A program made the position numbers and the translations under genes. Shown here in pieces: positions 37,795 through 52,727 of a DNA stretch of 64,000 nt; within the stretch, counting starts at the first letter, position 1, and the number at the start of each line of letters is the position of its first letter. The stretch is taken from contig NZ_VWNB01000007.1 of the NCBI RefSeq assembly GCF_013387475.1, forward strand, positions 1-64,000. Direction: 5' to 3'. This DNA is from Mariprofundus sp. KV (lineage in GTDB: Bacteria > Pseudomonadota > Zetaproteobacteria > Mariprofundales > Mariprofundaceae). The notes beneath the pieces are model-generated. The model did not search any database. It saw only the letters and a program-made list of their open reading frames with translations, and was not told where the DNA came from.

Positions 37795-38760
37795 ATGAAA
37801 ACAAAACTTGCCTTAGCCCTCTCTTGCGCCGCCCTGCTCGCCACCTCACAAATAGCCACTGCCGGAGACTCTTTTAGCAAACCTCTGCGCCAGCAATCCA
37901 ACCCCCAGATTCAGCAGCTACTTGAACAGCGTATTGCCGACCTGCACCTGACAAGAGCCACACGCAACAAACAGCTCTCTGTTGCCCTGGTCGACATTAC
38001 CGACCCGAACGCCCCTGCCATGGCCCAGATCAATGGTGATGAGATGATGTACGCTGCCAGCCTGCCCAAGATTGCCATTTTGCTGGCTGCATTCGAGCGC
38101 ATCCGCGAAGGGAAACTCAAACTCACCGATGATATGCGCCAGACGATGACCAGTATGATCCGCCGCTCATCCAATCAGGCTGCAACCAAGGTGATCAGAG
38201 CTGTCGGCATCAACTACATCAATCAGGTTCTCAAATCAGACAAATACCGCCTCTACGACCCCAAACACAATGGTGGCCTCTGGGTCGGTAAAGAGTACGC
38301 CTCAGGCGTAGCCAAACATCGCGACCCTCTGCACAACATCTCCCATGGTGCTACCGCCCTGCAGACCGCCCGCTTCTACTACATGCTGGAGTCCGGAAAA
38401 CTGGTTTCACCTGAATATTCACGCCAGATGAAAACCATGCTCGGCAACCCCGGCATCAACCATAAATTTGTTAAAGGTTTGAGCCAGAGCTCTCCGGATG
38501 CACTGATCTTCCGCAAATCAGGCAGCTGGCGTGACTTTCATGCCGACAGCGCCCTGATCGAACACAATGGCCGTCGCTATATTGCCGTGGCACTGGCCAA
38601 CAACCCTAAGGGTGGCGAGTGGATGACTCGTCTTATTCAGGCGATGAACGAGATCATTGTTGATCTGCATCCCGGTGTTGTTGCCGGATCAGTGCATGCA
38701 AGCGCGTCGCAAGCTGTCGGTGTTGCAGAGCCGCGTTCTTCTTCAAAACATTTGATGTAA
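37795..38760 (+). CDS. Exported serine hydrolase, beta-lactamase fold
   Basis: A 321-residue protein with a signal peptide (MKTKLALALSCAALLA... to IATAG) and the three active-site motifs of penicillin-binding folds: SLPK (AASLPKIAILL), SSN (RRSSNQAATK) and KSG (FRKSGSW). It resembles the class A beta-lactamase-like family (beta-lactamase2). Activity could be on peptidoglycan or a beta-lactam. GGAGGT precedes the chosen ATG, so the 46 upstream codons of the open frame are leader. Its last 107 bases overlap the 3' end of a convergent gene of the same fold. Confidence 0.85.
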   Translation: MKTKLALALSCAALLATSQIATAGDSFSKPLRQQSNPQIQQLLEQRIADLHLTRATRNKQLSVALVDITDPNAPAMAQINGDEMMYAASLPKIAILLAAFERIREGKLKLTDDMRQTMTSMIRRSSNQAATKVIRAVGINYINQVLKSDKYRLYDPKHNGGLWVGKEYASGVAKHRDPLHNISHGATALQTARFYYMLESGKLVSPEYSRQMKTMLGNPGINHKFVKGLSQSSPDALIFRKSGSWRDFHADSALIEHNGRRYIAVALANNPKGGEWMTRLIQAMNEIIVDLHPGVVAGSVHASASQAVGVAEPRSSSKHLM

Positions 38761-39916
38761 TCGCCACCATATAGCGGAGCTCTCCCTCTGGAGCCTCCAC
38801 AATAGCGACTGAATTCATCACATTCAGTTTGTTGCCCGCATATTTACGGCAGACAAAACCAGCTTCTGCTTCACACCTGTAGAACGAACCACTCTTGAAA
38901 TAGAGCGCAGCATCGCTCAATTCCGGCGCCGAGGCATATCGAATGCGGCGCTCTGTCATATACAGTAACCGTTTAAGCCGAAGACTTGACCACGCATCCA
39001 CCAACCGCCCCTGCTCCATGTGCAACAGGTATCGCATCAGCTCGCGTGTCGTACAGACACTGTTCGTGCCGGGTACACGTCGCTTACCTTCACGCGAAAA
39101 GAAGCCCCCCTGCCGCAAGCGCTCGGGATCAAGGCCACTGCGTTTCACCGCCTGTTGCAGCAGCGAGGTCAATCTCTTGCCCAGCTCCCGCGTCGAATGC
39201 TCATTGAAATAGGCCTCTTCCCTGGCTCTGCTCACCGGATAATCACGACCAAAATGGTTTAACAACATGGTATGTTTGAGCACCATGCTGGCCGCAGCAT
39301 TGGAGCTTGCCGAGAGCATCCAGTCGAGATAACTCCAGAAATTGGCGCTATCCCCCTCAACAATCGGCCGTTTGATCAGCCGTTTCTGCTCCGGCAACCA
39401 GAATGGCACCTTATGGTGATCAGTGCGGATAAATCGATCGGCTGTAATCATACTGTTGCGCAGAATCTGCTGTCTGGCTGCAACATCATCGGGATAGATA
39501 TCGGCAAGTGTCTGAAACAGCGCCAGTGCCAGCACCAGCTTTCCAAGACTGCCGGGGTTTCGCATCTGATCGCCATGCACCTCAGCGTAGCGTGGCCGCC
39601 CTGCATCGCTGATATCAAGCAGGCTGACGCTGTAGTGAGTCCCATCCTCGCCCAGCAGCTTGATAATCGCCTCTCTCAACAGGGGATCGGGATTGAGCAG
39701 TGGATCGCCACTGAACCCCTGCAGATGCAACTTCACCTGCTTCTGCAGCAGCAGTGCGCCTGCGGGCAGCTTGTTACCCGTCACCTCCCCCTGCCGGGCC
39801 AGTTGATAACCCTGCAAACGGCTGATACCGGTCTCTTCAGCCCCATCAAGGGGGTAGGCACTCACCAGAGGCGGCTGCCAGAGTAGTAAAAGCATGCACA
39901 GCAGAAGAGACCTCAT
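38654..39916 (-). CDS. Exported serine hydrolase, beta-lactamase fold, second copy
   Basis: A 420-residue protein with a signal peptide and the same motif order as its convergent neighbour: SLGK (NPGSLGKLVLAL), SSN (LSASSNAAASM) and KSG (YFKSGSFYRCE). It has an extra N-terminal segment (about residues 25-100) and inserted loops. The ATG overlaps the stop of the dikinase-like gene as ATGA, so it is made together with that protein. The 3' end runs 107 bases into the neighbour. The product may act on peptidoglycan; no substrate can be read from the sequence. Confidence 0.82.
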   Translation of the reverse strand: MRSLLLCMLLLLWQPPLVSAYPLDGAEETGISRLQGYQLARQGEVTGNKLPAGALLLQKQVKLHLQGFSGDPLLNPDPLLREAIIKLLGEDGTHYSVSLLDISDAGRPRYAEVHGDQMRNPGSLGKLVLALALFQTLADIYPDDVAARQQILRNSMITADRFIRTDHHKVPFWLPEQKRLIKRPIVEGDSANFWSYLDWMLSASSNAAASMVLKHTMLLNHFGRDYPVSRAREEAYFNEHSTRELGKRLTSLLQQAVKRSGLDPERLRQGGFFSREGKRRVPGTNSVCTTRELMRYLLHMEQGRLVDAWSSLRLKRLLYMTERRIRYASAPELSDAALYFKSGSFYRCEAEAGFVCRKYAGNKLNVMNSVAIVEAPEGELRYMVAITSNVLKKNAALQHRQLATRLHALIRQQHRDADQQ

Positions 39917-42837
39917 AGCTGCCACCCCTCCTGCGGCTTCACACTCAGATCAACGCGTTGGTTGGCGGAGGCCTCCAGCTCCCTGTCCATCTCAATCAAC
40001 AGCTGGCTCTGCATCGCTCGCCTGCTCTCCACAAACGGGCGCAGCTGGAACAGGGCGAGCTTACCATCTGCAAATCCGAACTCGATATCAGCCGCCATCT
40101 TTTCACCGGCTGCATCGCGTGGCATCGGAAAGCGCTGTTTGACATCGGCAGCAAGACGACGCAACTGTTCAACTTCATCACTGTCAAGCAACCTCTCCCG
40201 CCCACTGGCCTGTAGCCTCTCGATACCCCCGCCCTCTTGCAGTCGTATCTTTGTCGGCACTGAAGCCTGTGTCAGCAGACGCACGCGGCCTGTACTGCGC
40301 TCCACCCTGATCTCCTCGGCTGCCTGCCCCTCCACAGCACCGCCAACCCCCTCACTCACGGCAACAGATAGCCAGTTGCGGCTACCGTTATCAACATCGG
40401 CTGTCACCATTACACCCGACTTCTCCGAATCAAAACTCTGCAGCAGAAGCACAGAGGGGTAGAGGTGAAGTGGGTCAGTCATGTGAGCCTGTCGCCAGGC
40501 ATAGGCGCGCGCGCTAAAGGGTGAGGCCCACACCTGCTGTATAGCATCCACAATCGCATCCATACCCACCACATTGGCAACTGTAAGATTCAGGCCGGCA
40601 CCACTAAAACCGGGAAGATCCTCAACATTGGTATCGCTGCGCACAAAAACACCGCGATCGCCTGACTTGCGGAATATACGCAGATAGGCAAAACGCAACT
40701 GCTTTCTGAACTCATGACCGGGATCGGTGCTCACAATCCATTGCCGCAGCTTGCCCAGAAAAACGCTGGTCTGCTTCGCCTTGCTCTTTTCATCATCAAT
40801 CAATGCCAGTCGCGCATACTCTGACTGCATCCATGCAAAAACAGACGGCCCCCCCTCAAAGAGCGGCTTGTCGAGGTGGTGTCGGAAAACACCAAATGGG
40901 ATCACCAGCCCCAGTGGCACCAGCTTCGGATAGTGATGGTGCAGCTCGCCGAGATTGGCGGCCTTGGGTCCGGCGATAACACCTGAATCCTTGCTCCTGA
41001 GACTACCCAGCGCATGCATTCTGCGATCGTCCAGATTTAATCGCGCCCGAGAGGCCTTGATCAGGGGGGCGTCACCCCTCATCTGACTGCCAAACAGCCT
41101 CTCCCACTCCGGACTATCCTGCTCAATAACAACCCTGCCGCGCCGGCTCACAGCCAGCACCACCCTCTCACCTACATGTTCACTGATCGCTGACAGCAGC
41201 GCCTCATCAGCAACGAGATTGGGAATCCCCATGTTTCGTGCCAGCAGCTGCACATGTGAAAGCGAGCTACCCTCGCCACTGGTAATGATACCGGCCACCG
41301 GCGTCAGATCCTGCATGGTTGAGGGAAGGATATAGATGCCGTCACTGCGCAGAGGTTCGCCATGGGCAGGAGCCTGTAGCAGCACCCCGCGTTGCAGACC
41401 GGGATTAAGAGCACGCAAACGACTGTCAATTTGACGGCCAAAAAGAGTGTGTCTGATCCCTGCCAACCGGCCTGCATCAGCTATCAGGTGGTCAACTATG
41501 TGTGAGTAAGGCAGCAGAGGACTCTCGCGCAGCCGATCCGGGATCAGTCGACCGCTCAAAGGCGTGAGGGAAGCCCAGCGCTCCACTGCAGCGGAGAAGT
41601 GGAATGCCAGTGACTGCTGTGACCATTGAGGCAGACGCGCCAGATAACTTAATCGACTGTAGTAATCGCCGGCAGAGAGAGCATCCGCCGCAAGCAGCTC
41701 ATCGAGTTCACCATGAAAGGCCAGCAGCTGCCGTTCAGAGAGAAAGCCAGTACCATATAGTGCCGTGCCAAGCTGGCGTAACCAGCCTATACGGGCGTCG
41801 CGGCCGGCTTCTGGATAGCCCTGCAACAAGCGATTACCCCGAACAAATATCTCCGTTTCGATAATCAGTGAACCCTGCAGCAGCCGCAGACGATCATATT
41901 TTGAGTAGTCACCCCCTCCCTGCAGCAGCTGCCGCCAGAGTTGCAGTCTGGCTGCCAGCCTCTTCACTATAGTGGCCTCATCACCACCGGCACCAAGCAG
42001 GTTGCTTGTCTCTTTAAATTGTTCAACAAGCAGGGGACTTGAGCTCTCTCCAGCCAGTTGTTCCAGTTGCCTCAAACCGGTTCGAGGGGCATAGAAAAGA
42101 TCCAGTTGTTCAGCCAGCTGCGCATAGGATAACAGTAGCTCAGGCAGCCCCGCCTGATCGGCATAGTCGCGAACGCGAGTGGCATCCTGATCGTCGGGAA
42201 GCGAGTGGATTTTAACACGCAGATTCTTAAAGCCCGGATCCTGATCACCGAGCTCAGTGGCTGCCTGTCTGATTGCCGTTGCCAGTCGCTGTGGACCCGG
42301 TAGCGGCAGCCTGCGCACGGCCTCGCGCAGCAGAAGAAAACGCTCGGGTGTCCGCCATAGCGGGTCAGTCAGCAGCGCCAGCAATACTCTTGTCGCCGCC
42401 ACCTGCTCATCCTCAACCTGTACTGCACCGCGATGAAAAAAACGGGAGCGTCGAAAAACCCAGCCATCATCTACACGGATTAGAAACTGCTCGAGCAGAA
42501 TCTGGCTCAGCTCATCGATGCGTGCATCAGGTCCGGTAAACTGAGCTGGCGAGGTTGCTGCCAACACATTGCCAATCAGATAACCCTGATTGCGCATCTC
42601 TACCGCCCGGCTACCCAAGAGGCCGTATTGCCTGCCACCACCACGCTTGCTGCAGACATTTTCACCGGGTGGCAGTACCGAGCCATCGTTACAAAACCAG
42701 CGGATTTGCGTAAAGGGGCCATAATTATCGGTCTTGAATCCATCCACCCAGCTACGGTATTTACCGTGGTCCAGTTCAGCAGCCACAGCTGATCCCGCAA
42801 ACAGCAGAGAGATCACGACAAATATTCGTAGAATCAT
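39913..42837 (-). CDS. Exported dikinase-like protein (glucan-water-dikinase/PEP synthase fold)
   Basis: A 974-residue protein with a signal peptide (MILRIFVVISLLFAGSAVA). The N-terminal 480 residues are unrecognised and mostly helical. A swivelling phosphohistidine domain follows (GEGSSLSHVQLLARNMGIPN, His near 527), then the PPDK-type ATP-grasp domain (AGPKAANLGEL near 620; VIPFGVFRHHLD; RSDTNVEDLPGFSGAGLN near 730; FQLRPFVESR near the end). This order, His domain before ATP domain, is that of glucan water dikinases rather than PEP synthase. An ATP-dependent enzyme outside the cytoplasm is odd. It is coupled to a beta-lactamase-fold gene. Confidence 0.8.
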   Translation of the reverse strand: MILRIFVVISLLFAGSAVAAELDHGKYRSWVDGFKTDNYGPFTQIRWFCNDGSVLPPGENVCSKRGGGRQYGLLGSRAVEMRNQGYLIGNVLAATSPAQFTGPDARIDELSQILLEQFLIRVDDGWVFRRSRFFHRGAVQVEDEQVAATRVLLALLTDPLWRTPERFLLLREAVRRLPLPGPQRLATAIRQAATELGDQDPGFKNLRVKIHSLPDDQDATRVRDYADQAGLPELLLSYAQLAEQLDLFYAPRTGLRQLEQLAGESSSPLLVEQFKETSNLLGAGGDEATIVKRLAARLQLWRQLLQGGGDYSKYDRLRLLQGSLIIETEIFVRGNRLLQGYPEAGRDARIGWLRQLGTALYGTGFLSERQLLAFHGELDELLAADALSAGDYYSRLSYLARLPQWSQQSLAFHFSAAVERWASLTPLSGRLIPDRLRESPLLPYSHIVDHLIADAGRLAGIRHTLFGRQIDSRLRALNPGLQRGVLLQAPAHGEPLRSDGIYILPSTMQDLTPVAGIITSGEGSSLSHVQLLARNMGIPNLVADEALLSAISEHVGERVVLAVSRRGRVVIEQDSPEWERLFGSQMRGDAPLIKASRARLNLDDRRMHALGSLRSKDSGVIAGPKAANLGELHHHYPKLVPLGLVIPFGVFRHHLDKPLFEGGPSVFAWMQSEYARLALIDDEKSKAKQTSVFLGKLRQWIVSTDPGHEFRKQLRFAYLRIFRKSGDRGVFVRSDTNVEDLPGFSGAGLNLTVANVVGMDAIVDAIQQVWASPFSARAYAWRQAHMTDPLHLYPSVLLLQSFDSEKSGVMVTADVDNGSRNWLSVAVSEGVGGAVEGQAAEEIRVERSTGRVRLLTQASVPTKIRLQEGGGIERLQASGRERLLDSDEVEQLRRLAADVKQRFPMPRDAAGEKMAADIEFGFADGKLALFQLRPFVESRRAMQSQLLIEMDRELEASANQRVDLSVKPQEGWQL

Positions 42838-42980: not shown

Positions 42981-43073
42981 GTGAATTCTACCTTATGGCT
43001 ACAAACAATTGCTTTCTATCATCTTTTTTTCAATAATAGTGCTTCATTGTTAATGTCTGAGGAGGGGAGATGA
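42981..43073 (+). CDS. Possible 30-residue leader peptide
   Basis: GTG at 42981 opens a 30-codon frame (MNSTLWLQTIAFYHLFFNNS..., hydrophobic in the middle) preceded by AGGAGGTGAT, a complete anti-16S match, at a short 4-nt spacing from GGAGG. Its TGA overlaps the ATG of the next gene as ATGA. It may be a translated leader; the short spacing and lack of homology evidence keep confidence low. Confidence 0.35.
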   Translation: MNSTLWLQTIAFYHLFFNNSASLLMSEEGR

Positions 43074-43639
43074 CTGCGCAATCCAAGGAAACCAAGAAGC
43101 CACAAGATCATTCTGATGCCGCAACAGCTGGCAACGTCGACCAGATCAGGGATATTATTTTCGGATCACAGATGCGTGATTATGAGAGTCGCTTTCAGCG
43201 TCTGGAAGAGCGGCTGCTGAGTGAGCTATCGACAGTACGCAAAGAGGTCAACAATCGGGTTGAAGCACTGGAAACCTATATGCGCGGCGAAGTCGATGCG
43301 CTCAATGATCGCCTCAAATCTGAACGCGATGAACGTGAAACAGATAACAAGAATCTCGAAGATGAGATCAAGAATCTTTCTAAAGAGCTACTGCGCAAGA
43401 TCAGCCAGCTGGATGAATCGATGGCCAAGCACAATCGCGATCTGCGCCAGCAGCTACTGGATCAGTCGAAGAACCTGAGCAGCGACATTGATGCAACCAG
43501 AGAGCAGTTGAAAGCGGCACTGATGCGCTCCAGCGATGAGCTGCGCGAGAGCAAAACCGATCGTGTGGCGCTGGCTGAACTCTTCTCTGAGGTATCCCTG
43601 CGCCTGAAAGATGAATTCCCCATACCCAAGGGTAAATAA
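43070..43639 (+). CDS. Coiled-coil protein of unknown function
   Basis: A 189-residue hydrophilic protein, almost all predicted coiled coil (about residues 35-165, heptads such as FQRLEERLLSELSTVRKEV, LRKISQLDESMAKHNRDL). It has no signal peptide or membrane segment. The N-terminus is a short disordered region rich in Lys, Asp and Ala; the C-terminus ends LKDEFPIPKGK. GAGGAGGGGAG precedes the ATG. It begins a same-strand run with the OmpA-like, GTPase and cyclase genes, so it is probably a structural or adaptor part of that module. Confidence 0.7.
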   Translation: MTAQSKETKKPQDHSDAATAGNVDQIRDIIFGSQMRDYESRFQRLEERLLSELSTVRKEVNNRVEALETYMRGEVDALNDRLKSERDERETDNKNLEDEIKNLSKELLRKISQLDESMAKHNRDLRQQLLDQSKNLSSDIDATREQLKAALMRSSDELRESKTDRVALAELFSEVSLRLKDEFPIPKGK

Positions 43640-43665
43640 TACTGTCCGGGACTGCGTAAGCAGAG

Positions 43666-45948
43666 ATGAAAGAGACAGAAGATATCGAGCCAAACCGGGA
43701 TGACAGCAAAGATAGTGATCTGAAGCGCTTAAAAGCACTTCTTCTGGGCGATGAATCCGAACAACTGGCTGAAATTCAGGAGCACCTGCATAACCCTGAG
43801 CTGCAAGCAGCTGATGTAGGGCGTGTCCTGCACCGTGCTGTAACCATCAATCAAGAGCATGCGCCTGATGCCCTGAGGGATGTTTTGACACCAACCGTTG
43901 AGTCAGCACTCTATAAATCTGTTCGCAATAGCCCTGATCGTCTTGGAGAGGCGCTCTTCCCTGTCATGGCACCGGCAATCAGAAAATCGATCGTATCGAT
44001 CATGAGCAGCATGGTGCAGTCACTCAATCAGATGCTCGAACACTCTTTCACCCTTAAAGGACTGAAGTGGCGACTGGAAGCGCTGCAGAGCGGCCGTTCT
44101 TTCGCAGAGATTGTGATGCTGCATACCCTGGCCTACCGGGTTGAACAGCTCTTCCTTATTCACAAGGAGAGTGGCCTGCTGCTGCAACATGTCAGCTTTG
44201 ATGAGGCGGCCAACAAGGATGCCGATCTGGTCTCCAGTATGCTGACCGCGATTCAGGATTTTGTACGTGACTCCTTTCAGGTGGGCGAAAATGATGCCAT
44301 CGACAAGCTGCGCATCGGCAGCATGGAGGTATTCATTGAGGCGGGCTCCAAAGCAGTCATTGCCGCTGTTGTACGGGGCAATGCCCCTGCTGATTTCCCC
44401 GACACCCTGCAGCAGAGCAGTGAAGCGATTCACAAAAGGATGGCAGACAAGCTGGATGCGTTCGATGGTGATACAGCCCCGTTCAATGCCATTCGCCCTG
44501 AACTGGAGAAGTGCCTGCTATCAAAGTCCGCCAGTTCCGGTTCACCGTCAAACCTGAAAGCAGTTCTGGCGCTCTCCGCAGCAGCGATCATCCTGATTGG
44601 CTGGTTCTCCTGGGGGGCATATCAGTCGCACCGGCAGTCACTTCTTGTTGAGGCGCTGGATGCTGTTCCCGGCATAACTGTTATCCGCTCCTCCGACCGG
44701 AATGGCGCGCTGCAGATCTCCGGCATGCGAGATCCTCTGGCGGATACACCGCAAAGTGTGCTGCGTGAATATCAATTCTCCGATGATGATGTGCAGATGC
44801 AGTGGAGTCCCTATCAATCACTGGAGCCTCTCTTGATCATCAGACGGGCCAGAGCATTGCTGGCACCGGCAGATCAAACAGAGCTTGCATTAGATGGTAG
44901 TGAGCTTGTCATTTCAGGCGTAGCCACACAGGTTTGGCTTGAGCGGGCAAAACAGCTGGCCCCTGCCATGGCCGGCATCACCGGCTTGCGCAGCGATCAG
45001 CTCATCCTCACCGATTCGCCTGATTACCTCCTGCAACTTGCACGCAAGCAGCTGGCTCCACCTGCAACTGTGCAACTGAGCATTCGCGGGCACTCACTGC
45101 TGGCCAAAGGCAGCGCACACCACAAATGGATTCTCACTGCAACAGCTGGCGCCAGGAAAATACCCGGCATCAGCGCTTATGATGATTCTGGGGTGATTGA
45201 TCTGGACTCCGATAGCTACCTTCTTTCTGAAGCCAGAAAGATTTTATTACCACCATCAACAGTACGACTGAAGGTAGAGCAAGCTCACCTGTTCGCCAGT
45301 GGCCGAGCCACCTCAGAGTGGATCGCAAACGCCAGGCAACAGGCGCATGAGATCAATGGTATCAAGCGCTTTGACGCCAGCAAACTAACAACCATTATTA
45401 CAAGCCCGAGTGACAGACAGCTGCTGGCAGAGGCTAAACGCAGACTTGCACCTCCTGAGGGTGTCACCTTAAGCGTAGAGCAGCGCATCCTGAGTGTCTC
45501 CGGCATTGCCCCTTCCGCCTGGGCCAAAAAAGCCATCGAACAGGCCAAATCGATCAAGGGCTTAAAGGGATATGATCAACAAGCGCTGGTCATCGCAGAG
45601 TCAGCGCTGAAGGCGCTGAAGAAGAGACTCAATGGTCTGCAGCTGAAATTCAGGGCTGGCAGCAGCCAGCTGGAGAGCGACGAAGAGCAGAAGATTTCAC
45701 AACTGGCTCTGACACTGAACAAACAGGCCTCGCTCATACAGATGGCACAGGCCCATATCGATATCACAGGCTATTCAGGACTCCTGACCAATCGGGCTCA
45801 TGCGCTGGCGCTGAGCCGTGCAAAACATGTTACAACCCTGCTGACAACGCAGGGTGTTCCTTCGGCATGGATTCGCACACATGGACAAAAAGAGCGCTCC
45901 TCTGACTGGGCGGTAGACCTTGATCTGAAGTGGAAGCCACTGCCTTGA
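43666..45948 (+). CDS. Membrane protein: cytoplasmic roadblock-like region, BON-like repeats, OmpA-like end
   Basis: A 760-residue protein. Residues about 1-290 are cytoplasmic, with AIRKSIVSIMSSMVQSLN, KGLKWRLEALQSGRSFAEIV and a stretch (LIHKESGLLLQHV to IAAVVRGNAP, about 165-250) that looks like a roadblock/longin sensor. One membrane helix lies near 300-320. Then come about four repeats of roughly 65 residues with the pattern LAPP--V-L-V----L-ASG-A---W---A----IPGI (near 400, 463, 526, 594), BON-like, and a degenerate OmpA-type C-terminus. It overlaps the GTPase gene, with which it probably works. Confidence 0.75.
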   Translation: MKETEDIEPNRDDSKDSDLKRLKALLLGDESEQLAEIQEHLHNPELQAADVGRVLHRAVTINQEHAPDALRDVLTPTVESALYKSVRNSPDRLGEALFPVMAPAIRKSIVSIMSSMVQSLNQMLEHSFTLKGLKWRLEALQSGRSFAEIVMLHTLAYRVEQLFLIHKESGLLLQHVSFDEAANKDADLVSSMLTAIQDFVRDSFQVGENDAIDKLRIGSMEVFIEAGSKAVIAAVVRGNAPADFPDTLQQSSEAIHKRMADKLDAFDGDTAPFNAIRPELEKCLLSKSASSGSPSNLKAVLALSAAAIILIGWFSWGAYQSHRQSLLVEALDAVPGITVIRSSDRNGALQISGMRDPLADTPQSVLREYQFSDDDVQMQWSPYQSLEPLLIIRRARALLAPADQTELALDGSELVISGVATQVWLERAKQLAPAMAGITGLRSDQLILTDSPDYLLQLARKQLAPPATVQLSIRGHSLLAKGSAHHKWILTATAGARKIPGISAYDDSGVIDLDSDSYLLSEARKILLPPSTVRLKVEQAHLFASGRATSEWIANARQQAHEINGIKRFDASKLTTIITSPSDRQLLAEAKRRLAPPEGVTLSVEQRILSVSGIAPSAWAKKAIEQAKSIKGLKGYDQQALVIAESALKALKKRLNGLQLKFRAGSSQLESDEEQKISQLALTLNKQASLIQMAQAHIDITGYSGLLTNRAHALALSRAKHVTTLLTTQGVPSAWIRTHGQKERSSDWAVDLDLKWKPLP

Positions 45949-46448
45949 GTCAGGTTTTGCAGAAAAAGGTCTGTCTGCTGGGCGCCTTTGCAGTAGGCAA
46001 AACCAGTCTGGTCAGCCGTTTTGTAAAAGGCATCTTCTCCGAAAAATACCTCTCCACGATGGGTGTGAAAATTGATAGAAAGAATCTGCAGATCGGTGAT
46101 GTCACCATCAATATGATGCTGTGGGATATTCACGGTGAAGAGAGCAATAAAAAGGTGCCTGCCGCCTACATGCGTGGCACTGCCGCCTATCTTCTTGTCG
46201 TCGATGGCACGCGCGCCAGCACCATTGCTGCAGCCCGTGAGTTGCATGAACGCATGCGTGCTGAAGCGGGAGATATTCCCTTTGTCGTACTGCTTAACAA
46301 AAGTGATCTACAGGATGAGTGGCAACTCAGCGACGGCAACATGGCAGCCATGCAGGCTGAGGGCTGGGAGTGCTTTTTGACCAGTGCCTGCTCCGGCCTG
46401 AATGTCGATTTAGCCTTCACCAGACTGGCTGAGAAACTGGCCTCATGA
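45945..46448 (+). CDS. Rab/Ras-like small GTPase
   Basis: A 167-residue GTPase of the Ras superfamily. P-loop GAFAVGKTSL, switch I Thr in STMGVKI, switch II WDIHGEE (where eukaryotic Rab has DTAGQE), guanine motif NKSD and TSAC. It lacks a prenylation-type tail. The likely start is TTG, whose bases overlap the preceding TGA stop and which has GGAAG 8 nt upstream; a GTG 15 bases earlier is possible. Flanked by a roadblock-like membrane protein and a cyclase, it looks like the switch of a three-part signalling device. Confidence 0.85.
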   Translation: MSQVLQKKVCLLGAFAVGKTSLVSRFVKGIFSEKYLSTMGVKIDRKNLQIGDVTINMMLWDIHGEESNKKVPAAYMRGTAAYLLVVDGTRASTIAAARELHERMRAEAGDIPFVVLLNKSDLQDEWQLSDGNMAAMQAEGWECFLTSACSGLNVDLAFTRLAEKLAS

Positions 46449-47464
46449 GATCAGCGGAGTTGCCGGATCCACTGTTCTCCTATCTGGCCGATCTCTATAT
46501 CCACCAGGCTTCTCCGGCATGGATCAGGCTGGATTCTGATTGCCGCTGTATCGCCGAAGCAGGCGGTAGCTGGCCCCGCTACCTGGACAAGCCAAAGCTT
46601 AACCCCGGCAGTGAACTGGAAGAGCACTTCATTGTTCTTTGCGGGCAATCCTTTGATCAGCCGTTTGTGCTACCACAAATCGAGCTGCAGGATGGCCACT
46701 ACACGGATATCCACCATACACTTATTGATGGCGTCTCATGGCTGCTCTTTCTTGATGTCACTGAACAGGTCAGTGCGCAACAGCTGCAGCAGCAGAATGC
46801 CAATGAGTTAAGCCTGCTTAAAGACCGGCAAAAACAGACTCTGGATCGCTACATGGGTGCAACCATTGCCGAGCTGAGTGTCGGCGGAAAATTAACATTT
46901 AATGCCTCTGGCGAGCGCAGGCAGATCACAACCATGTTTATCGATCTGCGCAGCTTTACCCTGTTTAATGAGGCTTATGACCCCCAGCATGTAATGGATA
47001 CACTCAATCACTACATGACAAAGATGATCCCCCCCATTCTGGAGGAGCATGGCCTGATCGATAAGATAACCGGTGATGGTGCCATGGCCGTATTTGGCGT
47101 TCAGCAGAGGCATGCACCTGCTGAGAGTGCGCTACGGGCTGCCTGTAAAATTCAATGTGATGTTGCTGACTTAAACCGATCTCGTCGAGAGCAGGGAGAG
47201 TACGTGATGGAGGTCGGCGTTGGCATTGCCAGCGGTGAAGCGGTACTGGGTATTTTAGGTGCCCATGATCGACGTGCATTTACGGCCATCGGGCCGCACG
47301 TTAATCTGGCAGCAAGGCTTGAGAGTATCGCCAAAGGCGGTGAGATTTTAGTCGACTCCGCCACATTCAAGGCAACATCGCATCTGATCAGCAGTCATCA
47401 GCAAATGGAGATTGAGCTTAAAGGCATTGGCCTCACTCCCGTTTACAACCTGCAGACTTACTAG
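46445..47464 (+). CDS. Class III adenylate/guanylate cyclase
   Basis: A 339-residue protein. An N-terminal PAS-like region (about 1-110) is followed by a short coiled coil (QQLQQQNANELSLLKDRQK) and a class III cyclase domain: metal Asp in FIDLRSF, second Asp in KITGDGAMAVFG, transition-state Asn/Arg in GPHVNLAARLE. The Lys before TGDG fits ATP as substrate, but this is not certain. The ATG overlaps the GTPase stop as ATGA, so output of the module is probably a cyclic nucleotide. Confidence 0.88.
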   Translation: MRSAELPDPLFSYLADLYIHQASPAWIRLDSDCRCIAEAGGSWPRYLDKPKLNPGSELEEHFIVLCGQSFDQPFVLPQIELQDGHYTDIHHTLIDGVSWLLFLDVTEQVSAQQLQQQNANELSLLKDRQKQTLDRYMGATIAELSVGGKLTFNASGERRQITTMFIDLRSFTLFNEAYDPQHVMDTLNHYMTKMIPPILEEHGLIDKITGDGAMAVFGVQQRHAPAESALRAACKIQCDVADLNRSRREQGEYVMEVGVGIASGEAVLGILGAHDRRAFTAIGPHVNLAARLESIAKGGEILVDSATFKATSHLISSHQQMEIELKGIGLTPVYNLQTY

Positions 47465-49320: not shown

Positions 49321-49689
49321 ATGATATTGATTGTTGACGACAATGATGCGATTCGGGAAATGCAGGTTGCTGTGCTTGAGTCCGCCAATTATTCGGTACG
49401 TGAAGCGTCCAGCGGCAGCCATGCGCTGACCCTTGCTGAAGAGACAAGACCTCAACTGGTATTGATGGATATCACCATGCCCGGCATGACCGGCTATCAG
49501 GTGCTCGACCAGCTACGCGAAAAATATGGTAGTGAACTGCCCATCGTCATGGTCAGCGCTCTGCCAGAAGATGAAGAACGTGATATTGCGCTGGCCAGAG
49601 GGGCAACCGATTACATCAGTAAACCCTTTGATATCCCTTCAGTATTGAACTGTGTAAAACAATTTTTACCTGACACCATCACTGCATGA
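49321..49689 (+). CDS. Stand-alone response regulator (CheY-like)
   Basis: A 122-residue receiver domain: acidic pair in LIVDDND, phospho-Asp in LVLMDITMPGMTG, Thr/Ser in MVSALP, Lys in YISKPFDIP. No output domain is attached. Its stop overlaps the start of the large sensor kinase as ATGA, so it is probably a phosphoacceptor or diffusible signal of that kinase. Confidence 0.92.
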   Translation: MILIVDDNDAIREMQVAVLESANYSVREASSGSHALTLAEETRPQLVLMDITMPGMTGYQVLDQLREKYGSELPIVMVSALPEDEERDIALARGATDYISKPFDIPSVLNCVKQFLPDTITA

Positions 49690-52600
49690 GTCCCCACTCG
49701 TTCAGGCTGGCAATCATCGGGGCAGGTCGCGGCGGCCTTGCCCTGCTTAATGTACTGCAGGATGACAGCAACATCGAAGTCGTTGCCATCTCCGATGCTC
49801 GTACCGATGCCCTTGCCCTGCCTCTGGCAACCTCGCTCTCCATCCCGATCTGCCAAAGCATAGAAGAGATTCCCGATTGCGACATGGTGATCAATGTGAC
49901 CGGCTCCGCTGAAGCCTCAGAGCAGCTGCGTCAGCACTTCTCTTCTGATGTGGAGATCATGGAGGGCAAGGCTGCACACTTCTTCTATGATCAGGTTGGT
50001 AAACGCAAAAAAGAGAAGGAGCAGGTGGAGCGCATGCTCACCGAGCTTGAAAAACTCAACCGCCTCGGTCGCCAGCTCAACACCACCAACAACCTGACTC
50101 AGATGCTAAAGCTGGTGTTACGGGAAGCACTATTAGTCACCAACTCGCCTGCCGGAACCATCTCCCTGTATGACAAATCGAGCCGGGAGCTATCGCTGCA
50201 TACCGCTTCGGGTTTCAGTGAGGGTTTTGAGGAGCAGGAACCCTGGCTTGTAAGAGCCGGGGGATTAACTGAGCGCATTCTCAGTGAACGTAAACCATTC
50301 GTGGTTCCCAACATCTTCGAATCAAAGGACTTTAATCTGAATGTTGTTTTAGCCAATGAGGGCGTGGAGGCACTGGTAGCGCTACCGCTGGCCCTCGGCG
50401 ATGAAATTGTCGGCATCCTCTATGTGAACGATTTTGCACCACGTACTTATGACGACAATCAGGTCACTATTCTCGATCTTCTGGCCAGCCAGGCCTCGCA
50501 TGCGATTCAGAAGGCACGCCTGTTTCAGCGCATTGAAGATGAGAAACGCGAACTTAAACTGTTAAATGAGCATCTGGAAACGCGCATCATGGAGCGCACC
50601 AGTGACCTAACCAAGACCAATGAAGAACTGATTCGCTCCAACCAGGCCAAATCACAGTTCCTCAGCAACATGTCACATGAACTGCGCACGCCGCTCACCT
50701 CTATCAACGGCTTTTCCGAATTTCTTATCGATGGTTTTGTCGGCCCGCTTAACGAGGCGCAAAGCAAATACCTGAAGAACATCAACCTTTCGGGCAAGCA
50801 TCTGCTGGAGCTGATCAATGGCATCCTCGACCTATCCAAGATCGAAGCGGGCAAAATGAGCCTCAAGCTTGAAAAGGTTGATATTCCTCCCCTGCTCGAT
50901 GAGATCATGCTGGTACTGGAGGGTTTCGCCAACAAGGCCAACGTTAAACTCAACCTTGAGTGTATTGAATCTATTCCCGGTGTATTTATTGATCGCACCA
51001 AGTTTAAACAGATCCTCTACAACCTCTGCTCCAATGCCATTAAATTCAGCCCTGAAGGCAGCGAGGTAAATATTCTTGTCAATTACGACAAAGCCTCGTT
51101 TATCAGCGGCAATGAAGAGAGCTATGCCACGCTCTGCATCGCTATTCGTGACCAGGGCATCGGCATCGCACCGGAAGATCAGGCGATCATTTTCAACCCG
51201 TTTGAACAGGCCGATGGGTCGCACTCGCGTCACTTCGAAGGCACCGGGCTGGGGCTCACACTTACCAAACGACTGGTTGAGATGCATGGCGGCACCATCA
51301 CTGTTGAGAGCACGCCCGGTGAAGGAAGCTGTTTCACCTTTACCCTGCCGGTAGAGACCATCATACCTACAGCCGTTGAGCATCTTGAGCACCCCTCCGG
51401 AAGCTCTGAGTTCGTCAATCCAATATACAATAAACCCGACAGCGTCGCGGCTGATGCCCCACTGATTCTGGTGGTTGATGATGATGCCCACTCGCTGGAG
51501 ATCAGCACCCTCTACCTCTCTGATGCCGGTTACCGCGTCTGCCACGCCATGAATGGCGAAGATGCGCTGGATATTGCCCGCCGAAAACGCCCCTTCCTGA
51601 TTCTTCTGGATGTGATGATGCCCGGCAAAGATGGCTGGGAGGTACTGCAGGAGCTGAAACTGGATGCCGAGACCTCCGATATTTCTGTTATTATGTGTAC
51701 GGTTTCCGAAAATGAGGAGCTGGGCATGGCCCTCGGTGCCACCGATTATCTGGCCAAACCGATTGATCGTGATCTGCTGGCCTCCAAATTGTCAGTGCTC
51801 AGTAAAGGGCTACACAGCAGGCACAGCAGGCTGCAAATACTGGCCATTGATGATGATACAAAGGTTCTCGAGCTCTATGACGCCACCCTCTCAGCACAGG
51901 GGTATCGGGTGCATACGGCAAATAATGGTCCTGATGGCATCACGCTGGCTGAAACAATCGAACCGGACATCATCCTGCTCGATCTGATGATGCCCGGCAT
52001 GGATGGTTTTGAGGTGGCAGAACAGCTGAAGCGGCAACCGCGAACTCAGGATATCCCGATTATTGTGGTCAGTGCCAAAGACCTCTCTGTAGCAGAGAGG
52101 ATACGCCTGATGGGCCATATTGAGGACTGTGTCAGCAAGGATACCTTTACCAAAGAGCAGCTGCTGCAGGAGATTCAGCATTTTGAAACCCTCTACCCGC
52201 AACAGGCCGGACTCAAAGACTCTATCTCAGGCCTGCTCAACCACCGTTATTATCAGATTCGCCTCGGCCAGGAGCTCTCCCGCTCAGCACGCAACGGCCA
52301 GAATCTCGCCTGCGTACTGATTGATCTCGATGGCTTTGCCCGCTTCAGCGAACTGGTCAACGAAGGTTATGTACATGCTGCTCTGCGCAAAGTTGGCAAC
52401 TTCTTCCTGACCAACCTGCGCGGCTCCGACATCGCCACCCGCCACCGGATTGACGAGTTCGCCATGATTCTCACCCAGACCGAACTTGAGGGGGCTCTGC
52501 TGGTGGTCAAACGGCTGAAGAACCTGATTGAAGCCTACCCTTTCCCCGGAGAGGAGGCGTTGGGAGGAAATGGCATCACCGCCTGCGCAGCCATTTCGGT

Positions 52601-52727
52601 CTTCCCGGGTGATGGTAAAACAGCTGAAAAGCTGATGCAGAGCTGTCATAGCCTGATTCAGAGAGCCAAGTCTGAAGGGGGCAACAGGCTCACCTACCAC
52701 GAACATGGCAAAGTCGTGATTCTGTGA
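49686..52727 (+). CDS. Hybrid kinase: Rossmann, GAF, HisKA, HATPase, two receivers, degenerate GGDEF
   Basis: A 1013-residue soluble signalling protein. An N-terminal NAD(P)-binding-like Rossmann domain (AIIGAGRGGLALLNVL, about 7-95) is followed by a coiled coil, a GAF domain (about 130-275), the H-box SHELRTPLTSING near 333, an ATPase domain (DQGIGIAPEDQ, GTGLGLTLTK), two receivers (phospho-Asp in LILLDVMMPGKDG and IILLDLMMPGMDG), and a C-terminal GGDEF-like domain reading RHRIDEFAMIL where RYGGDEF is expected, so probably inactive as a cyclase. The ATG overlaps the preceding stop. The Rossmann fusion suggests a nucleotide or redox input. Confidence 0.88.
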   Translation: MSPHSFRLAIIGAGRGGLALLNVLQDDSNIEVVAISDARTDALALPLATSLSIPICQSIEEIPDCDMVINVTGSAEASEQLRQHFSSDVEIMEGKAAHFFYDQVGKRKKEKEQVERMLTELEKLNRLGRQLNTTNNLTQMLKLVLREALLVTNSPAGTISLYDKSSRELSLHTASGFSEGFEEQEPWLVRAGGLTERILSERKPFVVPNIFESKDFNLNVVLANEGVEALVALPLALGDEIVGILYVNDFAPRTYDDNQVTILDLLASQASHAIQKARLFQRIEDEKRELKLLNEHLETRIMERTSDLTKTNEELIRSNQAKSQFLSNMSHELRTPLTSINGFSEFLIDGFVGPLNEAQSKYLKNINLSGKHLLELINGILDLSKIEAGKMSLKLEKVDIPPLLDEIMLVLEGFANKANVKLNLECIESIPGVFIDRTKFKQILYNLCSNAIKFSPEGSEVNILVNYDKASFISGNEESYATLCIAIRDQGIGIAPEDQAIIFNPFEQADGSHSRHFEGTGLGLTLTKRLVEMHGGTITVESTPGEGSCFTFTLPVETIIPTAVEHLEHPSGSSEFVNPIYNKPDSVAADAPLILVVDDDAHSLEISTLYLSDAGYRVCHAMNGEDALDIARRKRPFLILLDVMMPGKDGWEVLQELKLDAETSDISVIMCTVSENEELGMALGATDYLAKPIDRDLLASKLSVLSKGLHSRHSRLQILAIDDDTKVLELYDATLSAQGYRVHTANNGPDGITLAETIEPDIILLDLMMPGMDGFEVAEQLKRQPRTQDIPIIVVSAKDLSVAERIRLMGHIEDCVSKDTFTKEQLLQEIQHFETLYPQQAGLKDSISGLLNHRYYQIRLGQELSRSARNGQNLACVLIDLDGFARFSELVNEGYVHAALRKVGNFFLTNLRGSDIATRHRIDEFAMILTQTELEGALLVVKRLKNLIEAYPFPGEEALGGNGITACAAISVFPGDGKTAEKLMQSCHSLIQRAKSEGGNRLTYHEHGKVVIL

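What the first reader, a model, noticed from the sequence alone, without database searches (positions are those of the whole stretch)
42981..47464. Coiled coil, roadblock/BON/OmpA-like membrane protein, Rab-like GTPase and nucleotidyl cyclase as one module
Seen: four same-strand genes; the last three overlap each other. The membrane protein couples a cytoplasmic roadblock-like region to periplasmic BON-like repeats and an OmpA-like end, and is followed by a Ras-superfamily GTPase and a class III cyclase. Known: roadblock proteins such as MglB act on small GTPases such as MglA. Inference: an envelope-sensing device in which wall or outer-membrane contact sets the GTPase state and drives cyclic nucleotide output. 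I do not know a described system with this composition.
Basis: partly seen in the sequence, partly recalled or inferred. Interest (0 to 1): 0.8.

Follow-up and report, generated by a model that had tools for sequence, protein, structure and literature searches.

The report
Rab-like GTPase module with cyclase output
Four neighbouring bacterial genes form a transmembrane signalling unit in which a Rab-like small GTPase sits between a cell-envelope protein and an enzyme that probably makes cyclic AMP; the gene set was noted by computer in 2014 but never tested, and here its mystery domain is predicted to fold like a known GTPase-docking domain and the same front end is found wired to at least six kinds of output.

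Summary
Four same-strand genes at 43070-47464 (not 42981) encode a coiled coil; a membrane protein (cytoplasmic domain, one TM helix, BON-like repeats, OmpA end); a Rab-like GTPase; and a class III cyclase. They form a conserved operon: in this order of Zetaproteobacteria, 30 of 31 genomes with the membrane protein have the GTPase, and the set recurs in other Pseudomonadota, Cyanobacteria and Verrucomicrobiota. Four things go beyond that text. (1) The 'unknown domain' is a longin/roadblock fold by prediction (all 50 top PDB fold matches), though not a PF03259 member by sequence. (2) The shared part of the outputs is a PAS-like domain plus a helix with one glutamine invariant in 61 of 61 sequences, across cyclase, GGDEF-EAL, HD-GYP and histidine-kinase outputs or standing alone. 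(3) Class III cyclases were probably recruited more than once. (4) GTPases lack their catalytic Gln wherever this adaptor exists (0 of 60). Likely mechanism: an envelope-anchored GTPase switch whose effector doubles as GAP. New variant of a known, untested kind.

The parts
43070..43639 (+). Coiled-coil protein (189 aa), conserved GNVDQIRDIIFG N-terminal motif
   Evidence: profile finds it next to the membrane protein in cyanobacteria, gammaproteobacteria and Verrucomicrobiota
43666..45948 (+). Membrane protein (760 aa): cytoplasmic N-domain, 1 TM, BON-like repeats, OmpA-like end
44053..44514 (+). Longin/roadblock-fold domain (residues ~130-283), the most conserved part; the Rup-system 'domain of unknown function'
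   Evidence: AF2 model: a-b-b-a-b-b-b-a; Foldseek vs PDB, top 50 all longin/roadblock; alignment of 39 relatives
44554..44610 (+). Single TM helix (residues 297-315)
   Evidence: Hydropathy
44827..45600 (+). Four BON-like repeats (residues ~388-645); copy number varies between relatives
   Evidence: Repeats visible; PF04972 sub-threshold here, above cut-off in L174 and L180
45649..45888 (+). OmpA-like domain; GHxD Asp lost (GYSG), SRA Arg kept
   Evidence: PF00691 32.1 bits vs cut-off 27.2; motif comparison
45930..46448 (+). Rab-like small GTPase (Rup); likely true start TTG 45945
   Evidence: PF00071 98 bits; profile best PDB matches Rab23/Rab7/Rab1/Sec4
46122..46142 (+). G3 motif W-D-I-H-G-E-E: Asp kept, catalytic Gln replaced by Glu70
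46445..47464 (+). Output protein: PAS-like N-domain, linker helix, class III nucleotidyl cyclase
46445..46759 (+). PAS-like domain (residues ~1-105), part of the adaptor shared by the outputs of this system type
   Evidence: AF2 + Foldseek: best matches are PAS domains or PAS-containing sensors; shared across outputs
46793..46795 (+). Codon of Gln117 in the linker helix, invariant in 61 of 61 output adaptors
46916..47449 (+). Class III cyclase domain with D167, D211 (metals), K207/T280 (adenine-type, class IIIb pattern), N287, R291
   Evidence: PF00211 74.9 bits; residue alignment

Best explanation
This is a Group 1 Rup system with an adenylate-cyclase-type output. The membrane protein's longin/roadblock domain is the membrane-anchored docking platform for the Rab-like GTPase; the periplasmic BON/OmpA part feeds it an envelope or wall state; the coiled coil helps assemble the complex. 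GTP-loaded GTPase engages the output protein's PAS domain and linker helix and so changes cyclase activity; because the GTPase lacks the catalytic Gln of switch II, the invariant Gln117 of that helix completes its active site in trans, so the output is both effector and GAP and each activation is self-limiting. SHOWN (computed): gene set, conservation, folds at model level, invariant Gln, absence of the GTPase Gln, interchangeable outputs, intact cyclase residues. INFERRED: physical interactions, nucleotide-dependence, direction of control, the envelope signal, cAMP as product.
For: Conserved operon, median spacing of -1 nt for membrane protein/GTPase and GTPase/output; co-occurrence 30 of 31 versus one weak match in 47 genomes without it, p about 3e-19; order CC-MP-GTPase-output in Zetaproteobacteria, gammaproteobacteria, cyanobacteria and Verrucomicrobiota. 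Longin/roadblock fold with MglB, Rag C-terminal domains, TRAPP and Mon1-Ccz1 among the matches, i.e. the fold class that contacts Ras-superfamily GTPases. Output catalytic parts differ (class III cyclase, GGDEF, GGDEF-EAL, HD-GYP, HK, HK-REC, HK followed by an NtrC-type regulator) while the PAS+helix adaptor stays in most, or stands alone as a ~130-aa gene in cyanobacteria, in several cases with a separate kinase next to it: it looks like the GTPase-facing adaptor. Gln invariant 61/61; GTPase switch-II Gln 0/60 in such systems versus Gln in 4 and His in 5 of 15 systems without a detected adaptor. The cyclase has all catalytic residues and the genome has 17 cNMP-binding domain matches as candidate receivers.
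Against: No complex was modelled and no experiment exists. The longin/roadblock call rests on an AF2 model from 7 sequences (mean pLDDT 61; mostly 70-85 over the domain) and Foldseek; sequence profiles are not significant. The Gln pattern in the adaptor-less set comes from few clades. OmpA and TM parts are dispensable in some relatives, and this copy's OmpA motif is degenerate. This genome also has an orphan GTPase + HD-GYP pair without coiled coil or membrane protein, so the membrane part is not always adjacent.
Confidence: 0.45

Rival explanations
1. The longin/roadblock domain itself is the GAP or GEF (as MglB is for MglA), and the invariant Gln of the output helix is a structural feature of signal transmission from PAS to output, not a catalytic residue.
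For: MglB, a roadblock protein, is GAP and GEF for MglA (PMC11016934 abstract). The helix sits exactly at the PAS-output linker, where signalling helices are common. The longin region has its own invariant residues (R106, R136, E148, D198, D202).
Against: Invariance of one Gln across outputs of unrelated enzymology, including a stand-alone adaptor with no output attached, and the complementary absence of the GTPase Gln.
Confidence: 0.25
2. A localisation device: the GTPase-longin complex recruits the output enzyme to envelope sites or poles, so that cyclic nucleotide is made in the right place, without switching its activity.
For: MglA/MglB sets cell polarity rather than enzyme activity (PMC2907295). 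Membrane anchor plus coiled coil fits a scaffold; OmpA ends in most relatives keep the GHxD motif.
Against: Verrucomicrobial versions end right after the longin domain, with no TM or OmpA part, so envelope anchoring is not essential to the system type.
Confidence: 0.2
3. The genes are merely co-transcribed; the GTPase does not act on the cyclase.
For: No interaction data exist.
Against: Same order in several phyla with different outputs sharing one N-terminal adaptor, near-perfect co-occurrence, and a second GTPase-output pair in this genome with the same linker.
Confidence: 0.03

Closest known systems
Group 1 Rup system (Wuichet & Sogaard-Andersen 2014, PMC4316618)
   Same: Rab/Ras-like single-domain GTPase without switch-II Gln; coiled-coil protein; domain of unknown function + TM + OmpA protein; output protein with N-terminal region holding an invariant Gln
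   Different: Output here is a class III nucleotidyl cyclase; the paper's text names GGDEF/EAL fusions and histidine kinases as typical. The paper leaves the fold of the unknown domain and of the output N-terminal region unassigned
MglA/MglB (Myxococcus, Thermus)
   Same: Small GTPase beside a roadblock-type fold
   Different: The GTPase keeps the G3 Asp (MglA differs, PMC4316618) and its profile is closest to Rabs; the longin/roadblock domain is not a PF03259 member and is built into a transmembrane protein
Actinobacterial conservon (Cvn: histidine kinase, roadblock, DUF, MglA-type GTPase)
   Same: Four-gene GTPase operon coupled to a signalling enzyme
   Different: Separate roadblock protein, MglA-family GTPase, kinase is the membrane sensor; no coiled-coil/OmpA protein
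Eukaryotic Rab/Rag GTPases with longin/roadblock platforms (Ragulator, TRAPP, Mon1-Ccz1)
   Same: Fold class of the platform and closeness of the GTPase profile to Rab23/Rab7/Rab1
   Different: Bacterial, fused to envelope domains, wired to second-messenger enzymes
Ras-activated adenylyl cyclase of budding yeast (from own knowledge)
   Same: Ras-superfamily GTPase paired with a class III cyclase
   Different: Different interaction parts; convergent at best

Membership tests
Group 1 Rup system | Single-domain Ras-superfamily GTPase under 240 aa, closer to Rab/Ras than to MglA, G3 Asp kept | tested here: met
   172 aa; PF00071 98 bits; best PDB profile matches are Rabs; D66 present
Group 1 Rup system | G3 catalytic Gln missing | tested here: met
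   Glu70 in its place; no Gln in 60 of 60 scored systems with the adaptor
Group 1 Rup system | Neighbouring cytoplasmic coiled-coil gene | tested here: met
   43070-43639; profile conserved across phyla
Group 1 Rup system | Neighbouring protein with domain of unknown function, often TM and OmpA | tested here: met
Group 1 Rup system | Output protein with N-terminal region containing an invariant Gln | tested here: met
   Q117; 61 of 61
Group 1 Rup system | Output is typically GGDEF/EAL or histidine kinase | tested here: not met
   Class III cyclase. The paper says 'typically', so this marks a variant, not exclusion
Group 1 Rup system | Placement in the Group 1 clade of the published Rup tree | not tested
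   Supplementary tables could not be read; a membrane-protein homologue (42% identity) is in a Mesorhizobium record, a genus the paper lists for Group 1
Roadblock/LC7 (MglB-type, PF03259) | Sequence match to the family | tested here: not met
   No PF03259 hit among the families listed for 23 members at E<=1; hhalign not significant; best PDB profile hit is a Roadblock/LC7 protein but at E=0.088
Longin/roadblock fold superfamily | Five-stranded sheet with longin/roadblock helix order | tested here: met
   Predicted model and Foldseek; model confidence moderate
MglA family | MglA-type G3 motif and partner MglB gene | tested here: not met
   G3 Asp present; no PF03259 gene beside it; the genome's two PF03259 matches lie on another contig
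Class III nucleotidyl cyclase | Two metal Asp, purine-specifying pair, transition-state Asn/Arg | tested here: met
   D167, D211, K207, T280, N287, R291
OmpA peptidoglycan-binding domain | Asp and Arg of the peptidoglycan-binding motif | tested here: not met
   Asp lost (GYSG), Arg kept in the window protein; both kept in many relatives outside the genus
BON domain | PF04972 above cut-off | tested here: not met
   14.4 bits vs 27 in this protein; met in homologues

The most novel reading that the evidence does not exclude
Bacteria have a general 'Rab-type' signalling chassis: a longin/roadblock transmembrane receptor charges a Rab-like GTPase that reads out through one portable PAS-helix adaptor, which both receives the signal and supplies the missing catalytic glutamine, and which has been joined to at least five kinds of enzyme (cAMP and c-di-GMP metabolism, phosphorelay); here it controls an adenylate cyclase.
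Probability: 0.3. Interest if true: 0.88.

Novelty: new variant of a known kind. Interest (0 to 1): 0.62.

Why it matters
The 2014 survey left two questions open: what the unknown domain of Group 1 Rup systems is, and who supplies the missing catalytic Gln. Both become directly testable: a longin/roadblock domain gives Rup GTPases a partner of the same fold class as MglB and the eukaryotic Rab/Rag platforms, and the portable PAS-helix with its invariant Gln is a concrete candidate GAP. If it works as proposed, it is a bacterial small-GTPase receptor pathway that feeds cAMP or c-di-GMP, using GTPases whose closest solved relatives are eukaryotic Rabs.

Tried and rejected
Pfam, NCBIfam and PDB sequence searches gave no family for the membrane protein's N-domain or the coiled coil. 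hhalign of the N-domain against roadblock profiles was not significant; it aligned 80 columns in the expected register, unlike the other families tried, but the score barely exceeded shuffled controls, so homology to PF03259 is not claimed from sequence. An IMG/VR search found no relatives. The apparent exception G043 (membrane protein without GTPase) was an artefact of ORF picking; the full quartet is there. A single origin of cyclase outputs on the front-end tree is not rejected (AU p 0.15), but the catalytic domains of the f27 group sit with other cyclases, away from the Mariprofundales ones (100/99), so separate recruitment is the better reading. A natural GTPase-membrane-protein fusion, which would have allowed modelling of the interface, was not found in the loci read. 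Loci from the whole-genome tools were kept out of structure prediction because its stated rule does not list them; both models therefore rest on shallow alignments, and the second (mean pLDDT 53) is usable only for its N-terminal domain. No Rfam element and no promoter-like excess.

Full report
WHAT IS THERE. The window lies in contig C26 of a 2.53-Mb genome of the Mariprofundus group of Zetaproteobacteria (nearest named relative). Four + strand genes form one operon: coiled coil 43070-43639, membrane protein 43666-45948, GTPase 45930-46448, cyclase 46445-47464. GTPase, cyclase and OmpA domains pass Pfam cut-offs; BON does not in this protein but does in homologues. No RNA element or promoter excess was found.

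CONSERVATION. Within the order, 31 of 78 genomes have the membrane protein and 30 of them the GTPase (in the 31st the membrane protein runs into a contig end); of the 47 without it, only one has even a weak GTPase match (Fisher p about 3e-19). The order CC-MP-GTPase-cyclase is the same in all Mariprofundales loci not cut by contig ends. With a profile of the N-domain the system was found in further Pseudomonadota, cyanobacteria (31 of 244 genomes), Verrucomicrobiota (3 of 195) and Gammaproteobacteria (23 of 273), mostly with the same gene order. Distribution is patchy even inside the genus.

ALREADY DESCRIBED. Wuichet & Sogaard-Andersen 2014 (PMC4316618) describe exactly this neighbourhood for 'Group 1 Rup' GTPases: coiled coil, unknown domain + TM + OmpA, GTPase lacking the G3 Gln, and an output module 'typically' GGDEF/EAL or histidine kinase with an invariant Gln in its N-terminal region, which they suggest could supply the missing Gln. 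They state that no Rup member has been characterised experimentally; my literature searches found no later work, in a library limited to open-licence papers.

WHAT IS ADDED, 1: FOLD OF THE UNKNOWN DOMAIN. The N-domain (residues ~130-283) is the most conserved part across phyla. By sequence the best PDB hit of the 39-row profile is a Roadblock/LC7 protein, but only at E=0.088, and profile-profile comparison is not significant. I therefore claim the fold, with moderate confidence, not membership of PF03259.

WHAT IS ADDED, 2: THE PORTABLE ADAPTOR. The output proteins differ in enzymology: class III cyclase, GGDEF, GGDEF-EAL, HD-GYP, histidine kinase, hybrid kinase, and kinase followed by an NtrC-type regulator. 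What most share is an N-terminal ~105-residue domain and a helix; a second cyanobacterial clade with GGDEF or kinase outputs has no detectable copy. The domain is PAS-like by model and fold search. In several cyanobacteria it is a gene of its own, 127-135 aa, in some followed by a separate kinase. One Gln in the helix is identical in 61 of 61 sequences; in the window it is Gln117 of the cyclase.

WHAT IS ADDED, 3: COMPLEMENTARY ACTIVE SITES. In systems with the adaptor none of 60 scored GTPases has Gln at the switch-II position (Glu in 44); in 15 systems without a detected adaptor four have Gln and five His. This fits the 2014 idea that the output supplies the Gln, but the second set comes from few clades, so it is suggestive, not proof.

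WHAT IS ADDED, 4: CYCLASE OUTPUT. The cyclase keeps metal Asp167 and Asp211, Lys207/Thr280 (the adenine-type pair of class IIIb, from established knowledge of the family), Asn287 and Arg291. The Mariprofundales cyclases form one clade (100/100), and those of the f27 group sit with other cyclases (100/99), so the same front end was probably joined to cyclases more than once; the front-end tree alone does not reject a single origin (AU p 0.15). On the front-end tree the six real output types need 9 changes (15 when 'none', 'other' and adaptor-only are counted as labels): outputs are mostly inherited with their clade but have been swapped repeatedly. The genome has nine class III cyclase matches and 17 cNMP-binding domain matches, so cAMP signalling is plausible.

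WHAT IS ADDED, 5: A SECOND BRANCH. The same genome and its sister hold another GTPase of this family 118 kb away, overlapping an HD-GYP protein with the same linker but with no coiled coil or membrane protein beside it. The GTPase-output pair may be the minimal unit, and the one membrane protein might serve both a cAMP and a c-di-GMP branch; this is inference.

MECHANISM. Most likely: the longin/roadblock domain docks and conditions the GTPase at the inner membrane; GTP-bound GTPase grips the PAS-helix of the output and alters it; the helix Gln then completes the GTPase active site and ends the signal. Rivals are a longin GAP/GEF with a merely structural Gln, and a localisation scaffold.

VERDICT. 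Real, conserved, and a new variant (cyclase output) of an in silico known but experimentally untouched kind. The fold assignment and the portable adaptor with its invariant Gln make the questions left by the 2014 survey testable.

Noticed in passing
L246:9631-11255 (same genome, contig C26 about 164630-166254); L247:5998-7550 in the sister genome: Second GTPase of the same family overlapping an HD-GYP protein with the Gln-bearing linker, without coiled coil or membrane protein: a possible c-di-GMP branch of the same signalling type.
   Followed up: partly
window 49686-52727 (+): 1013-aa protein with a Rossmann-like NAD-binding N-terminus (GFO_IDH_MocA just below cut-off) followed by GAF, histidine kinase, two receiver domains and GGDEF; an unusual sensor architecture.
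   Followed up: partly
L192-L196, L198-L200 (gammaproteobacterial loci): A response-regulator gene of about 230-260 aa stands just upstream of the coiled-coil gene in systems with hybrid-kinase outputs, suggesting a five-gene version.
   Followed up: no
L111-L113, L115 (other Pseudomonadota): Divergent pairs of membrane protein and GTPase with no detected output gene and an Asp at the switch-II position (WDTDGD); a separate subfamily.
   Followed up: no
window 39913-42837 (-) and 38654-39925 (-): PPDK_N/PEP-utiliser-like 974-aa protein overlapping a beta-lactamase-family protein of 423 aa; partner function unknown.
   Followed up: no
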